Shown here: piece after piece, positions 1 through 60,544 of the stretch
Numbering within the stretch: the first letter of the stretch is position 1
How the letters are laid out: each line of letters starts with the position of its first letter
Assembly (NCBI GenBank): GCA_020720765.1
Contig: DYOB01000006.1
Coordinates: forward strand, 1-60,544
Origin: Borreliella garinii
GTDB taxonomy: Bacteria; Spirochaetota; Spirochaetia; JABEVK01
Direction of reading: 5' to 3'
DNA length: 60,544 bases
Notes under the pieces: generated by a model
What the model was told of the DNA's origin: nothing
The model's database searches: none
The model's input: the letters and a program-made list of their open reading frames with translations, nothing else
Made by a program: the position numbers and the translations under genes

Positions 1-477
1 AAATTGCCAGGGCTAAATCCAATTATGCCAAATGAGTTTTACGGGACACTAGCAAGAGCAGAAACCTTCTTATATTGGGCAATTGTCGCCCCTGTGGAAA
101 TAGGAGCAGTTGTAAAGGCTGGAGTAAGTGCTAGAAATAACAATTCAAGTTTGGGACTTCCAAATGTTCGTCTAGACCGAAGCAGATTTCCTGAAACTGC
201 AAGACACTGGACAGACGCCCAACTATCTGGAAAACAATCAATCTTAACAATTAATCGACCAGCTGCTAGGCCAAATCGTTCATTATCACTTCAGGGGATT
301 GATAAAGCGCCTGGAATGCAATTAGACGAGTATCCACCAGCTATATTTTCTGAAGGTGGCAGAGGAGCAAGCGTTCGTGCAATACCATCTTCGGATAATA
401 TGGGATCAGGTGCTAGTATAGGGAATCAATTACGATCATTTCCAGATGGAACTAAAGTGTTACTTATTGTAGAATAA
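1..477 (+). CDS. NucA/NucB-type deoxyribonuclease domain protein, C-terminal part (5' end outside window)
   Basis: Frame is open to the left edge; C-terminus DEYPPAIFSEGGRGASVRAIPSSDNMGSGASIGNQL resembles the NucA/NucB motif (DEYPxA...GGxGASVRxVPxxENxxQG). Confidence 0.8.
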   Translation, partial: KLPGLNPIMPNEFYGTLARAETFLYWAIVAPVEIGAVVKAGVSARNNNSSLGLPNVRLDRSRFPETARHWTDAQLSGKQSILTINRPAARPNRSLSLQGIDKAPGMQLDEYPPAIFSEGGRGASVRAIPSSDNMGSGASIGNQLRSFPDGTKVLLIVE

Positions 478-486
478 GGAGTATTT

Positions 487-960
487 ATGATGGAATTCAA
501 TGTTGGTTTATTAGAAGTTTCATATAAACAGATTTCAATTTTTATATATGGTTTAGATAACCCATTTAATGATTGGAGTCAAATAAATATAAAGCAAGGA
601 TTTACATATAGGAGCGAATCTATTGGAATTATGACTCTAAATGATGATGGTCCAATTCATGTGAATGTAGATACTAGCTTGAACATTGTCCCTGAATCAG
701 TTAGAATCCTTGTTTTACCCTTTAAAATAATTGGGGAAAATGGTGTTGAAATTGCAACTTTAACAGAGAGCTCATGGATTGATATACCGGACGGCGAATA
801 CTCGCTAATAATTCAGTTAGGAAATGATAATATTACCGGAAACTGGTGTCGCTTTTCGCTCATAAATGCAAATCAGTTTGATTCAAGTCCAAGATACTTA
901 AAACATGATCCGGAAATAAGTGTTGCAGAAAAGTTTGATTTAAATGCAGGCCCTGCATAG
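487..960 (+). CDS. ComJ/Nin-like nuclease inhibitor, putative immunity protein
   Basis: Starts 9 nt after the nuclease stop with an overlapping aaggag RBS; LLEVSYKQISIFIYG...DWSQINIKQGFTYR...VLPFKIIGENGVEIATL...IDIPDGEYSLII resembles B. subtilis Nin/ComJ as recalled. Confidence 0.7.
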   Translation: MMEFNVGLLEVSYKQISIFIYGLDNPFNDWSQINIKQGFTYRSESIGIMTLNDDGPIHVNVDTSLNIVPESVRILVLPFKIIGENGVEIATLTESSWIDIPDGEYSLIIQLGNDNITGNWCRFSLINANQFDSSPRYLKHDPEISVAEKFDLNAGPA

Positions 961-1076: not shown

Positions 1077-1134
1077 TGTCATCACCGGTGATAAAGTTCC
1101 TAGATTCACCGGTTTCCTGGTTCCGCTTTTGACA
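1077..1134. repeat. 58-bp direct repeat, copy 1
   Basis: tgtcatcaccggtgataaagttcctagattcaccggtttcctggttccgcttttgaca; about 55/58 identical to 1347-1404; contains palindrome TCACCGGTGA. Confidence 0.9.
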
Positions 1135-1326
1135 ACCGGTTTCAAAATTCCCGTGTGAGTGACTGGAACTTTGGCGCGGGGTTGTCCACAAAACCTGGGG
1201 ATGATTTTGGCCCCCTCCCGCCTTCTTTGAGATAAAACTAATAACTTTTATAGTGACTATCGGACTCCAACAAGGTGGAGATATTGGAGTTATTAGATAT
1301 ATTGGAACCTGTTTACTCCCCACAAC

Positions 1327-1557
1327 CTACTTCCAGGGATTGTGATTGTCATCACCGGTGATAAAGTTCCTATAATCACCGGTTTCCAGGTTCCGCTTTT
1401 GACATAAGAAGGGGCGGTCCTCTAAGCTGTTGTTACTCAGCAATACCAAAGCTGACTCATACACAGATTCCAATAACCCCATACCAAGCTCATGATGCAC
1501 CGCGAAACACGCCCCCAGCAGTTGATGGGAAAGCTCCTTCTCGACCACTATGTCCAT
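1327..1557 (-). pseudogene. Truncated GxxExxY-family protein
   Basis: MDIVVEKELSHQLLGACFAVHHELGMGLLESVYESALVLL matches the GxxExxY N-terminus; reading frame then enters the 58-bp repeat and ends. RBS aaaggaggcaaaga before ATG at 1557. Confidence 0.7.
1347..1404. repeat. 58-bp direct repeat, copy 2
   Basis: tgtcatcaccggtgataaagttcctataatcaccggtttccaggttccgcttttgaca; exactly 270 bp from copy 1. Confidence 0.9.
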
Positions 1558-1820
1558 TCTTTGCCTCCTTTTGTCTTGCTCCATCTCGGAGCGACGAGCT
1601 GTCAAGGCCGATAGAGCCTGAGGCGTGCCTTGACGGTAAGGAGTGAGAGATAAAATGAAAAAGTCGGAGGCGGAGAGAAAAGTAATCCAGCCAGGCATCA
1701 GTGCCGCGCCGCATGGCGCCAGTGACACGGCGTCAGCCGTCAGTGGTAAAAAGAATTTCAGCCACTGGTGATCTTCGACCGATCATGGGGCCCTTAGGGC
1801 ACCACCATCCCGCATCATCC

Positions 1821-6041: not shown

Positions 6042-7327
6042 AAGTACCTCTTTGCGGTTTTGACAAGGGCGGCCGCATCGGAACAGAGTGACTGTTCTCC
6101 GTCGGCCAGCCTTTTAACCAGCCATTGCCCCCCCTTGGGGATCACCGTAACGGGTATGTTTTTCTTTTCAGCGTAGGCGTACTGTACTGCAACTTTCTTG
6201 TTTTCGGTAAATAAGTCGGTTTTTACCCCGCCTTCACGGAGCACCGCGGCGGTTTTCCATGAAGCATCCTGCGGTTCGCTGTCCGACTGCATTACAAGAA
6301 CATCCGCTGTCCGGGAAGACCCCGCAAGAAGACCCAACTCTTCAAGTCCCGTGAGCAGGCGGTCGAGACCCACGCTCGAACCGACTCCCGGCAACCTTTC
6401 TTTCGAATAGAGCTGGGCTAAATTATCGTAACGTCCGCCGCTACACACACTTCCCAGGCTCGGCAGTTCTGTAAGAAAGGTCTCGTACACCACCCCCGTG
6501 TAATAATCAAGCCCGCGGGCTATCCCGAAATCCGGAGTCACCCGGTCCAGAACCCCGCAGGATTCAAGCCGTGAAACCACCTCTCGGAGCCTTTTGAGAA
6601 TTTCCTCAGAACCAGCCACCATGTTTTGAGCCCTTTCAAGAGCCTGCTTCCATGATACTGCCGGGGCAATAAATTCGAGAATGGTTGAAACCTGGTTTTC
6701 ATCCGTCAATTCCAAGAGAGAGGCCTTTAGAGCCTCAAGACCGATTTTATCGCGCTTGTCTACTGTTCTGAGTATTTCAGGGGCCTGGGACTCGAGTCCC
6801 AGGTTGGCAAGGAAGAGTTGAAGCAATCCCTTGTGGTTGAGACGGATGCTGACCTTGCCGGCCCCGAGAAGTTCCAAACTTTGGACCATCATCAGAAGAA
6901 TCTCCGCATCGGCATCCGGACTGTCGGCACCGACTATGTCGAAATCACACTGGAAAAATTCACGGTACCTGCCCTTCTGGGGGTTCTCACCGCGCCAGAC
7001 CTTGGCCATATGGTAACGCTTAAACGGAAAAGGTAATTCCTCGCGGTGCTGGGCGGAAAATCTGGCAAATGGCACAGTTAGGTCGTAGCGGAGGGCGACC
7101 TTTCTCTCTCCATTGTCGGTAAACCTGTAAATCTGCTTATCCGATTCCCCCCCTCCTTTTCCAAGGAGAATTTCCTCGTATTCGAGGGCCGGGGTGTCAA
7201 TGGGTTCAAACCCGAAGGCGCGGAAACTCGTCTCTAGAGCGGCCATTAGGTCGCGCCTGCGTATTTCCTGCGCCGGGAGTGCGTCTCGAAAACCCTTGAG
7301 GGTTTGTGGTGTGATCAAAGAACTCAT
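6038..7327 (-). CDS. hisS: Histidyl-tRNA synthetase
   Basis: LRYDLTVPFARF...FKRYHMAKVWRGENPQKGRYREFFQCDFDIVG; GLDYYTGVVYE; GGRYDNL. Confidence 0.95.
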   Translation of the reverse strand: MSSLITPQTLKGFRDALPAQEIRRRDLMAALETSFRAFGFEPIDTPALEYEEILLGKGGGESDKQIYRFTDNGERKVALRYDLTVPFARFSAQHREELPFPFKRYHMAKVWRGENPQKGRYREFFQCDFDIVGADSPDADAEILLMMVQSLELLGAGKVSIRLNHKGLLQLFLANLGLESQAPEILRTVDKRDKIGLEALKASLLELTDENQVSTILEFIAPAVSWKQALERAQNMVAGSEEILKRLREVVSRLESCGVLDRVTPDFGIARGLDYYTGVVYETFLTELPSLGSVCSGGRYDNLAQLYSKERLPGVGSSVGLDRLLTGLEELGLLAGSSRTADVLVMQSDSEPQDASWKTAAVLREGGVKTDLFTENKKVAVQYAYAEKKNIPVTVIPKGGQWLVKRLADGEQSLCSDAAALVKTAKRYL

Positions 7328-7390
7328 GGTGTGAGTTTACTCGTTTTACCGAGGGTTCACAAGAACAGCTTCACTGATTATAATCGTCCA

Positions 7391-8251
7391 ATGCATGGAC
7401 CACAAGGAAATGAAAAAGAACTTCAGGATTTGCGTTTAGCCAAATTTATGGAACTTTGCTCCCTGAAAATCATCATTCTGGGAGGGAAAGGCGGAGTAGG
7501 TAAATCCACCGTCAGCGTTAACCTGGCAGCAGCCCTCGCAGGGCTTGGCTACCGGGTCGGACTTCTCGATGCCGACCTCCACGGCCCGAATACCGCCCGG
7601 ATGTTGGGTGTTGAAGGTTCCCGGCTAGAGCCCGGGTCCGAACAGGGTCTTATAACCCCCTACCAAGCCCGGCCTAGTTTGCGCGTTGCCTCGCTGGCAA
7701 TGACCAACGACGAAAGCACCCCCTTTATTTGGCGGGGGCCTTTAAAAATTGCTATTATCAGGCAGTTCCTAGCCGACGTCGAATGGGGCCCCCTCGATAT
7801 TCTTGTGGCGGATTCCCCCCCCGGCACGGGAGACGAACCTCTTACGCTCGCCCAGTCGATCACCGGAAAAAGGTTTGCGGTCGTCGTCACTACCGGCCAA
7901 GATGTGGCCCTCCAGGACGCAAGCCGCAGTTTAAACTTTGCTAAATCCCTTGAACTTCCTATTCTGGGTATAGTGGAGAATATGGCCGCCTACCTTGCCT
8001 CTGACGGAAGCGAGTTGCCGCTTTTCGGGGGACCAGGGGCAGGCCTTCTGGCCAAATCCTTCGGTGTGCCCATTCTCGCCCGCCTTCCCCTCGACCCCGA
8101 AGTTTCCAGATCCCCGGATATGCCATTTACCGAGAGGGATGGAATTCTTAAAACAACGTTTGCTCCGGTGGTCGACGCGGTCATTAAAGCACTAAAGGGC
8201 GGCGGAACCCCCATGTGGGAACCGAAGCCGGGCAGGCCGAATGCTCGTTAG
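7391..8251 (+). CDS. Mrp/NBP35-type P-loop ATPase
   Basis: LGGKGGVGKSTVSVNLAAALA, LLDADLHGPN, DSPPGTGDEPLTLAQ; ATG at 7391 chosen to clear the divergent hisS start. Confidence 0.9.
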   Translation: MHGPQGNEKELQDLRLAKFMELCSLKIIILGGKGGVGKSTVSVNLAAALAGLGYRVGLLDADLHGPNTARMLGVEGSRLEPGSEQGLITPYQARPSLRVASLAMTNDESTPFIWRGPLKIAIIRQFLADVEWGPLDILVADSPPGTGDEPLTLAQSITGKRFAVVVTTGQDVALQDASRSLNFAKSLELPILGIVENMAAYLASDGSELPLFGGPGAGLLAKSFGVPILARLPLDPEVSRSPDMPFTERDGILKTTFAPVVDAVIKALKGGGTPMWEPKPGRPNAR

Positions 8252-9428
8252 GTATAGTAAAGACGAAAAAGGCCGCGCCGTAAGATCCGCAGAAATCTAT
8301 ACGAAAGAAGAACACGGGATCAAACTTGAAGATATAGACCCGGATGCGATCTTTGTCTGCAGAAAACTTAAAGCCGCCGGCTACGAAGCCTATATAGTCG
8401 GGGGAGCCGTCCGGGACCTCCTTCTTGGAAAGAAGCCTAAAGATTTCGATATCGCCACTTCTGCCCAGCCCAGGTTTGTGAAAAAGGTTCTGCCGCGCTC
8501 CCGCATCATCGGAAAAAGGTTCCGCCTCGTCCACGCCGTTTTTCATTACAATAAAATTCTGGAGATCGCCACCTTTCGGTCCGATATCGCCGGGGACGCC
8601 AACGTCTTCGGGACCCTTGAAGAAGACGTACGCCGTCGTGATTTTACGTGCAATGCTCTTTTCTACGATCCTAAAGAGGAACAGGTTATCGACCATGTCG
8701 GCGGGGTCAAGGATATCCGCCAGAAAAAGTTGCGCAACGTCATTGACCTGGAGACGATATTCACAGACGACCCTGTGCGCATGATCCGTGCCGTAAAGTA
8801 TGCGGCGCTCTCCCGCTTCTCTTTGGGCTGGAGTCTAGGATGGAAGATCAAATCCCAGGCAAAACTTTTGGCCCAAATCAGCCCGAGCAGACTTACAGAG
8901 GAGTTTTATAAAATACTTTTTTCCGGGCAGAGTTACGATTTGATTGAGACCTTAAATAAAAACGGACTCCTGAAATTTTTTGTTCCAGCCCTCGATGAAG
9001 CACTGGGAAAGGTTAGGAGCGCTCTAAAAAGAGCCCTCCCAGTTCTCGACAGGGCTGCCAAACTCGGAGAGGACGAACAGGCCCTTCAGAGGCCTGAAGC
9101 GTTCTTTCTCCTTCTGGAACCCATTATGGAAAGTTTAAACATGGGCACGACGGCTTCCACTCAGAACTTTATGGAAAACATCCTTTGGATTAAAAACTTT
9201 TTTAAGCCCATCGTCCCTTCCAACCGTGAATGCGAAGAAAGCCTCAGGGCGCTGTATAAAAAGTGGGCTGTGCGGGCTCCTCGTCCGAAACTCCCACGAA
9301 CAGCACACCCTTCGGGTCCGGTACCTTCCGAGCTTGTCGATGTTGCAGATGGTTTAGTGAAGAAACGCAGAAGGCGCAGAAGACCCAGAAAGAAACCCGA
9401 GCAAGGTCCCAATCCTAACCAGGATTAA
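8241..9428 (+). CDS. pcnB: Poly(A) polymerase / CCA-adding nucleotidyltransferase family
   Basis: YIVGGAVRDLLLGKKPKDFDIATSA...RRRDFTCNALFYDP; basic C-terminal tail KKRRRRRRPRKK. Confidence 0.88.
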   Translation: MLVRYSKDEKGRAVRSAEIYTKEEHGIKLEDIDPDAIFVCRKLKAAGYEAYIVGGAVRDLLLGKKPKDFDIATSAQPRFVKKVLPRSRIIGKRFRLVHAVFHYNKILEIATFRSDIAGDANVFGTLEEDVRRRDFTCNALFYDPKEEQVIDHVGGVKDIRQKKLRNVIDLETIFTDDPVRMIRAVKYAALSRFSLGWSLGWKIKSQAKLLAQISPSRLTEEFYKILFSGQSYDLIETLNKNGLLKFFVPALDEALGKVRSALKRALPVLDRAAKLGEDEQALQRPEAFFLLLEPIMESLNMGTTASTQNFMENILWIKNFFKPIVPSNRECEESLRALYKKWAVRAPRPKLPRTAHPSGPVPSELVDVADGLVKKRRRRRRPRKKPEQGPNPNQD

Positions 9429-9456
9429 GACCAGGCTCAAACCAGGAAGTTAAAAT

Positions 9457-10710
9457 CTATTTCATAAGGTTGATAACGGCTTCGGCATTTTCCTTGTAGT
9501 CTGCAGGATTTTCCTCTATGGCCTTTTGAAGAAGTGCGGTGGCCTCTTCATACTGTCTCAGGTAGAAGGCATTCAACCCTAAAGCATAAGGAATAAGACC
9601 TGGAGGTGGTGAAAGAGCAAGAGCTGCCTGGTAGTGGCCAAGCGCCTCGTCGTATTTGCTTTCAGAATAAGCGGTGAGACCCAGGTAGTAATGGGGTCGG
9701 AAGTCGGTAGGACGGATGGTGAGTCCCTGTTGGAAAAAAGTTTTAGCCCCTTCCCAGTCGCCGGCCCGGTAGCGTTCTATACCGCTTTCCATATAACTTG
9801 AAAATCCCTGAAGGGCGTTGACATGGTTCATCATGTCGGTAGTCACATCAGCCAATGACTTTGTACTCATAATGCGGTTTAATACCGACTGGGAGTTGTT
9901 TGCTAAGGTCTCCGAGGGTGAGATGCTCATAACGACGTTTGCCTGGAGCCTCACGTAGGTGGTATTCGCAGAATTGCTTAAAAAGTGAGCTGCTGCCCAG
10001 GAAAGATAATCTTGTTCCGGGGTGCTTCTTTCATCGGGGATACTGAAAAGAACCCTAAGGTCGGGTGCCCCCTTCCTCAGCTCATTTTTTGTGGCCTCCA
10101 GAAAAGTGAGATTTCCAGAATCATCTACGGTCTGGGTTTCAGGGTTCCATTTGAGATCCCAGAATAAGTACGCGTAACCGTTACGGACCCAAACCGGGGG
10201 ATTTGGAACAAAACTCCATAAAAACTGGATAAAACCCTGGAAAGAAAGTGAATTGAACCAATTGTCTCCATTCCCCCAAGCCACAAGCTCGTTACGGGAA
10301 CTGTCGCGCCAACTCAGGTACACGAAATCATTCCTCGTACCTGTCACCTTTCCATTAAGATATGAATCAAATGACTCTTTATCCGCAAACCAGCGGATCT
10401 TGAGTGGCTGGGTCAGCGAGCCCTTGTCGAACTGAAAGTAGACGTTGTATTTCTCGAAGAGTACTTCTGCCATCTTCAGGATTACCTTGGCGTGTTCTTC
10501 GCTGATCTCGCTCTCTACAACGTGGATGGGACCGGAAGCCTGGAAAAAATTCGAAGCAACTCCTGTAGCCACGGGGGTTGCGACGGGTGCATCCTGGGTG
10601 GCCATCGGGGTAGCCGGTTCGGCCGGTACCGTAGGTGTTGCTGTTTCCTGGGCTGAATTGAACCCAATGAATACCATGGCGATGAAAAATAAATTCACGA
10701 ATCTCTTCAT
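9457..10710 (-). CDS. Secreted TPR-containing protein
   Basis: N-terminal signal; C-terminal TPR-like repeats (HYYLGLTAYSESKYDEALGHYQAALAL). Confidence 0.65.
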   Translation of the reverse strand: MKRFVNLFFIAMVFIGFNSAQETATPTVPAEPATPMATQDAPVATPVATGVASNFFQASGPIHVVESEISEEHAKVILKMAEVLFEKYNVYFQFDKGSLTQPLKIRWFADKESFDSYLNGKVTGTRNDFVYLSWRDSSRNELVAWGNGDNWFNSLSFQGFIQFLWSFVPNPPVWVRNGYAYLFWDLKWNPETQTVDDSGNLTFLEATKNELRKGAPDLRVLFSIPDERSTPEQDYLSWAAAHFLSNSANTTYVRLQANVVMSISPSETLANNSQSVLNRIMSTKSLADVTTDMMNHVNALQGFSSYMESGIERYRAGDWEGAKTFFQQGLTIRPTDFRPHYYLGLTAYSESKYDEALGHYQAALALSPPPGLIPYALGLNAFYLRQYEEATALLQKAIEENPADYKENAEAVINLMK

Positions 10711-60494: not shown

Positions 60495-60544
60495 GAGCCT
60501 GTTGCGCTTGAGATTTTGACACAGGACCGGGGAGCCGGGATGCA
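60495..60544. mobile_element. IS1182-like element, copy 3 (truncated by window end)
   Basis: gagcctgttgcgcttgagattttgacacaggaccggggagccgggatgca matches the left ends of copies 1-2; preceded by TTAG (60491-60494). Confidence 0.8.

What the first reader, a model, noticed from the sequence alone, without database searches (positions are those of the whole stretch)
1..960. NucA/NucB nuclease followed by a ComJ/Nin-like inhibitor: candidate toxin-immunity cassette
Seen: open frame at the left edge with an NucA/NucB-type C-terminus, then 9 nt later an ORF resembling Nin/ComJ, in AT-rich DNA unlike the flanking core. Established: in Bacillus, Nin (ComJ) inhibits the competence nuclease NucA. Inference: here the pair may be the C-terminal toxin of a larger polymorphic effector with its immunity protein, a different use of the pair.
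Basis: partly seen in the sequence, partly recalled or inferred. Interest (0 to 1): 0.75.

Follow-up and report, generated by a model that had tools for sequence, protein, structure and literature searches.

The report
Toxin nuclease–immunity pair cut by transposon
The left end of this contig carries the DNA-cutting end of a bacterial weapon protein next to the gene for its antidote, a pairing already described in 2012; here the front of the weapon gene is cut off by a jumping gene, so it is a sound but ordinary example.

Summary
The two protein calls are right. ORF1 carries a NucA/NucB (ComI) nuclease domain (PF14040, E 8e-8; PDB NucB, E 4e-25) with all four NucB active-site residues. Nine bases later an intact ORF matches ComJ/Nin (PF11033, E 4e-16), its ribosome-binding site overlapping the ORF1 stop. 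The stretch is the most AT-rich of the window. The 'open frame at the left edge' was misread: bases 1-51 are the right end of an IS630-like insertion sequence, found again at two other contig ends before unrelated DNA. True ORF1 sequence starts near base 52; its upstream part is cut off. The toxin-immunity reading is supported: the nuclease groups with Rhs/VENN toxin nucleases, not secreted Bacillus enzymes (support 99/96), and lacks the two cysteines (Cys66/Cys100 of NucB) present in all nine stand-alone nucleases compared and absent from all four toxin forms. The genome holds at least five other Rhs C-terminal cassettes. No delivery domain was found for this one. The idea is not new: Zhang et al. 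2012 defined Tox-ComI/Imm-ComJ, and a Burkholderia plasmid shows the complete PAAR-Rhs-ComI + ComJ arrangement. Verdict: real, a probably orphaned member of a known kind; low interest.

The parts
1..51 (+). Right end of an IS630-like insertion sequence (transposase C-terminus IARAKSNYAK-stop in frame 3, then terminal repeat TTTTACGGGACA, TA at 50-51 within CTAG 49-52)
   Evidence: Same 52 bp at the ends of C459 and C443 before unrelated DNA; repeat scan; frames. The IS630 family name is inferred; the transposase body is not assembled.
52..477 (+). ORF1: C-terminal fragment of a protein ending in a NucA/NucB (ComI) nuclease domain, 5' part cut off by the insertion sequence
   Evidence: PF14040 8.4e-8; PDB NucB 4.4e-25; groups with Rhs/VENN toxin nucleases, 99/96 support
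205..207 (+). Active-site His (BlNucB His53)
   Evidence: Alignment; residue role from PMC5758888; position
325..330 (+). Active-site Asp-Glu (BlNucB Asp93, Glu94)
   Evidence: Alignment; residue roles from PMC5758888; position
397..399 (+). Metal-binding Asn (BlNucB Asn117)
   Evidence: Alignment; residue role from PMC5758888; position
475..486 (+). ORF1 stop codon overlapping the Shine-Dalgarno sequence (AAGGAG) of ORF2: translational coupling (inferred)
   Evidence: Read directly
487..960 (+). ORF2: ComJ (Nin)-family inhibitor, the presumed immunity protein, intact
   Evidence: PF11033 4.3e-16; PDB 4mqd 8e-4

Best explanation
This is a polymorphic-toxin C-terminal cassette of the Tox-ComI/Imm-ComJ kind. 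ORF1 is the nuclease (toxin) end of a contact-dependent or injected effector, most likely of Rhs type. It is a metal-dependent, non-specific beta-beta-alpha-fold DNase using the DE and N motifs. ORF2 is the cognate ComJ immunity protein, translated through coupling to the toxin stop codon, which binds the nuclease and blocks it in the producing cell. An IS630-like element has since inserted at a CTAG inside or at the start of the toxin gene, separating the nuclease end from whatever delivered it. The pair is now probably an orphan, with a conserved nuclease active site and an intact antidote. Shown: domains, gene order, active-site residues, toxin-type phylogeny and cysteine loss, insertion-sequence end. 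Inferred: Rhs delivery, inhibition of this nuclease by this ComJ, and the order of events.
For: Domain calls. All four BlNucB catalytic residues are kept. In a tree of 14 NucA/NucB domains the window groups with Leptospira Rhs and Rahnella VENN toxin ends (99/96) and apart from all nine secreted or stand-alone forms. The Cys66-Cys100 disulphide of BlNucB is present in 9 of 9 stand-alone nucleases and absent from the window and 4 of 4 toxin forms. A Burkholderia multivorans plasmid has a PAAR-Rhs protein ending in this domain followed by a comJ gene. Own-genome Rhs cores with different C-terminal ends lie on C473, C428, C444, C462 and C131; C444 is followed by a SUKH-like gene. Shared insertion-sequence end. 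Literature precedent.
Against: No delivery domain is seen. The stretch between the insertion and the nuclease domain (about window 52-180) matches none of the own Rhs cassettes or the other Rhs toxins (best E 0.36). The one unassigned left-end contig, C464, has only about 111 bp between the insertion and the divergent DUF499 gene; if it is the partner, there was no large N-terminal part. The hydrophobic stretch FLYWAIVAPVEIGAVV could be read as a membrane anchor as in Bacillus NucA. The tree rests on 99 columns and the window's branch is long (0.98).
Confidence: 0.72

Rival explanations
1. ORF1 is a short, membrane-anchored or secreted NucA with its inhibitor ComJ, used as in Bacillus for DNA uptake or extracellular DNA degradation, not as an antibacterial toxin.
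For: If contig C464 is the partner of the window, at most about 37 codons precede the insertion. C464 does not look like the partner of C443: its flank has no room for the missing half of C443's Exo_endo_phos gene. A hydrophobic segment lies about 25 residues before the nuclease domain, as in Bacillus NucA (spacing recalled, not tested). The last residues KVLLIVE resemble Bacillus forms.
Against: The domain lacks both structural cysteines found in every stand-alone nuclease compared and groups with toxin forms. NucA-like domains are otherwise absent from 395 sampled genomes of the phylum (the weak extra hits look spurious), which suits a horizontally acquired cassette. ComJ occurs in only 2 of 395.
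Confidence: 0.18
2. The locus is decaying debris: an effector gene destroyed by the insertion sequence, with no present function for either ORF.
For: The insertion truncates ORF1; a truncated PDDEXK_3 gene and short repeats lie just right of the pair; no neighbouring gene order is conserved in relatives.
Against: Both reading frames are open and all catalytic residues are kept, so any decay is recent. This is compatible with the best explanation rather than opposed to it.
Confidence: 0.1

Closest known systems
Tox-ComI / Imm-ComJ polymorphic toxin-immunity pair (Zhang et al. 2012, PMC3482391)
   Same: NucA/NucB-type (ComI) nuclease with DE motif as the C-terminal toxin, followed by a ComJ immunity gene
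   Different: The front of the gene is cut off here by an insertion sequence, so the delivery module is unseen.
Burkholderia multivorans plasmid PAAR-Rhs-NucA/NucB protein with comJ (NZ_CP090720.1 and others)
   Same: Same toxin domain (53% identical) and same immunity family, adjacent genes
   Different: Complete effector with PAAR and Rhs repeats; the toxin gene and comJ overlap by a few bases; the two ComJ proteins are only 24% identical
Leptospira weilii / L. noguchii plasmid Rhs proteins with NucB-like ends
   Same: Closest nuclease domains found (54% over the domain), no structural cysteines
   Different: The immunity gene next door is an SMI1/KNR4 (SUKH)-type protein in L. noguchii and an unclassified hypothetical in L. 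weilii, not ComJ
Bacillus NucA/Nin (ComI/ComJ) and NucB
   Same: Same nuclease and inhibitor families and gene order; active site conserved
   Different: Stand-alone secreted or anchored enzymes; NucB-type members carry a Cys66-Cys100 disulphide, which the window domain lacks

Membership tests
NucA/NucB (ComI) nuclease | Profile match above the curated cut-off | tested here: met
   PF14040, 33.1 bits vs cut-off 23.8
NucA/NucB (ComI) nuclease | Catalytic His53, Asp93, Glu94, Asn117 (BlNucB numbering) | tested here: met
   All four kept
NucA/NucB (ComI) nuclease | DNase activity | not testable with these tools
   Needs purified protein
ComJ/Nin inhibitor | Profile match above the curated cut-off | tested here: met
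   PF11033, 59.2 bits vs cut-off 25
ComJ/Nin inhibitor | Binds and inhibits the adjacent nuclease | not testable with these tools
   Needs binding and activity assay
Polymorphic toxin (Tox-ComI/Imm-ComJ) | Toxin domain at the C-terminus directly followed by the immunity gene | tested here: met
   9 nt spacing, coupled ribosome-binding site
Polymorphic toxin (Tox-ComI/Imm-ComJ) | N-terminal delivery module (Rhs, CdiA, PAAR, LXG or similar) | tested here: inconclusive
   Contig ends in an insertion sequence; left partner not assigned
Polymorphic toxin (Tox-ComI/Imm-ComJ) | Nuclease domain of the toxin lineage rather than the secreted lineage | tested here: met
   Tree 99/96 with toxin forms; both disulphide cysteines absent as in all toxin forms
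Stand-alone secreted NucA/NucB | Cys66-Cys100 disulphide pair | tested here: not met
   Leu and Phe at these positions
IS630-like insertion sequence | Terminal repeats and TA/CTAG target with the same end at several unrelated sites | tested here: met
   Three right ends, two left ends; NAD-kinase-like gene split between C284 and C459
IS630-like insertion sequence | DDE transposase of the IS630 family | tested here: inconclusive
   Body not assembled; no DDE_3 match in the genome; a 22-residue C-terminal peptide matches no profile

The most novel reading that the evidence does not exclude
The insertion sequence may have turned a delivered toxin into an intracellular one. An ATG inside the insertion sequence (base 25) is in frame with ORF1 and lies within ten bases of the transposase stop, so restart after transposase translation could make a short nuclease that ComJ must neutralise, giving a toxin-antitoxin-like addiction module at the insertion site.
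Probability: 0.07. Interest if true: 0.45.

Novelty: new member of a known kind. Interest (0 to 1): 0.2.

Why it matters
It adds a sequence-level marker, loss of the NucB disulphide cysteines, that separated toxin-type from secreted NucA/NucB domains in the 14 sequences compared, useful when the upstream gene is missing. It also shows how an insertion sequence at a contig edge can imitate an open effector frame. How ComJ inhibits these nucleases was still open in 2017 (PMC5758888); a cysteine-free toxin version with its own ComJ would be a reasonable subject for a complex structure.

Tried and rejected
Searching genome contigs with ORF1 (none) and ORF2 (one hit, which lies in a large unrelated reading frame). 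Weak NucA hits in C315, G302 and G321 read as unrelated or broken frames. IS630 transposase domain DDE_3 in the genome: none. The insertion-sequence body by DNA in the family: only the three known ends plus short chance matches. Shared gene order left of the HrpB-like helicase in relatives G001, G003, G004, G006: no match to the window's left genes or to DUF499. NCBIfam for both ORFs: nothing. PADLOC for both ORFs: nothing. Short transposase peptide against plasmids: no match. Structure prediction was not run, because sequence evidence for both families was already decisive and only monomers can be folded.

Full report
Observation. The window is contig C360 of its genome from base 1. Its left frame ends at 477 and carries a NucA/NucB domain (PF14040, 8.4e-8; PDB NucB 6ejs, 4.4e-25). 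Nine bases after the stop an ORF of 157 residues (487-960) matches ComJ/Nin (PF11033, 4.3e-16; PDB 4mqd, 8e-4). The Shine-Dalgarno sequence AAGGAG overlaps the ORF1 stop. Bases 52-960 are 37.3% GC against 48.3% for the window, and the four lowest of 597 900-bp windows start at 100-400. These parts of the finding are correct.

What the left edge is. Bases 1-52 recur at the ends of contigs C459 and C443 with 96-100% identity, each time followed by unrelated DNA. In C443 the element extends further and reads QWVKTADEIKGKIARAKSNYAK and a stop in a frame other than that of ORF1, then a terminal repeat ending at CTAG. The matching opposite ends, TAGTGTCCTGTAAAACAC..., lie at the ends of C284 and C464. 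C284 and C459 carry the two halves of a NAD-kinase-like gene (my reading of the frames, with only a weak PF01513 match), as expected for one insertion. So the left edge is the right end of a multi-copy insertion sequence, which explains why the assembly stops there. IS630 type is inferred from the TA/CTAG target and the terminal peptide; the transposase body is not assembled and no DDE_3 match exists.

The missing left part. Three right ends and two left ends are assembled. C284 belongs to C459. C464 is left for either C443 or the window. C443 carries the first part of an Exo_endo_phos gene running into the element (PF03372 matched to profile position 97 of 225), and C464's flank, 111 bp in front of a divergent DUF499 gene, has no room for the rest. 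This leans towards C464 being the window's partner, in which case at most about 37 codons lay upstream; but a third left end is missing from the assembly, so this is not settled. The flanks were not joined, because that would be inside a candidate toxin gene.

Toxin or competence nuclease. The four catalytic residues established for B. licheniformis NucB (His53, Asp93, Glu94, Asn117; PMC5758888) are all present. In a tree of 14 domains the window groups with the Rhs ends of two Leptospira plasmids and a Rahnella VENN pre-toxin protein (99/96) and apart from nine stand-alone Bacillus, Paenibacillus and phage nucleases. The disulphide Cys66-Cys100 of NucB is present in all nine stand-alone forms and replaced by Leu/Val and Phe in the window and all four toxin forms. 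A reducing target-cell cytoplasm would make such a disulphide useless, which fits a delivered toxin (inference). The genome carries at least five other Rhs cores with differing C-terminal ends (C473 TseH-like, C444 with a weak HNH match and a SUKH-like neighbour, C428, C462, C131), so Rhs proteins are present in this organism.

Known precedents. Zhang et al. 2012 (PMC3482391) list Tox-ComI with Imm-ComJ or Imm-SUKH as polymorphic toxin-immunity pairs and propose that the Bacillus competence pair evolved from one. Note that their Tox-NucA is a different, HNH/EndoVII-fold family. The Burkholderia multivorans plasmid NZ_CP090720.1 shows the intact arrangement: a protein with PAAR, Rhs and ComI domains followed by comJ. 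The pair seen here is therefore a new member of a known kind.

Distribution. In 395 sampled genomes of the phylum only this one has a convincing NucA/NucB domain, and ComJ occurs here and in G037 alone, where no nuclease partner was seen directly upstream and it sits among repeated sequences.

Mechanism. ORF1's nuclease end would cut DNA non-specifically in a target cell; ORF2 would protect the producer by binding it. With the insertion in place the delivery part is separated, and the pair is probably an orphan toxin end with its antidote. An in-frame ATG inside the insertion sequence at base 25, close to the transposase stop, could in principle restart translation, but no ribosome-binding site is evident. 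Inhibition, delivery and expression are not shown.

Noticed in passing
L030 9849-10283 (genome G037), with surrounding repeats in 6400-9850: A ComJ gene without a nuclease partner, among repeated near-identical segments that look like an integron cassette array: a possible orphan immunity cassette.
   Followed up: partly
G000 contigs C473, C428, C444, C462, C131 (L035-L039): At least five Rhs C-terminal ends, four of them with a near-identical core (FGARYLDPKLGRWLSEDPALLEYLP, one slightly diverged) and different toxin ends; all lie on short contigs, so the toxin repertoire is under-assembled.
   Followed up: partly
C284:1-600 and C459:1805-2170 (L023, L004): A NAD-kinase-like gene appears split by the same insertion sequence; an unexpected target if it is the only copy (copy number not checked, Pfam match weak).
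   Followed up: no
L022 (C464:6000-12743): DUF1156 methyltransferase, DUF499 and DUF3780 cluster (PADLOC candidate defence proteins) next to an insertion-sequence copy that is itself interrupted by a second element.
   Followed up: partly
window 1077-1140 and 1347-1410: Two copies of a repeat of about 60 bp (TGTCATCACCGGTGATAAAGTTCC...GGTTCCGCTTTTGACA), nature unknown.
   Followed up: no
window 1327-1728: Truncated PDDEXK_3 (GxxExxY-type) gene on the minus strand running into the repeat.
   Followed up: no
window about 60500-60544: Right end of the contig carries another recurrent element, TAGGAGCCTGTTGCGCTTGAGATTTTGACACAGGAC, also seen wholly or in part in C459, C464 and C454: the window is bounded by mobile or repeated elements on both sides.
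   Followed up: no
L029 3700-4300 (Sinorhizobium meliloti Rm41 pSYMB): Broken ComJ homologue (40% identical) with no NucA gene evident directly upstream.
   Followed up: no
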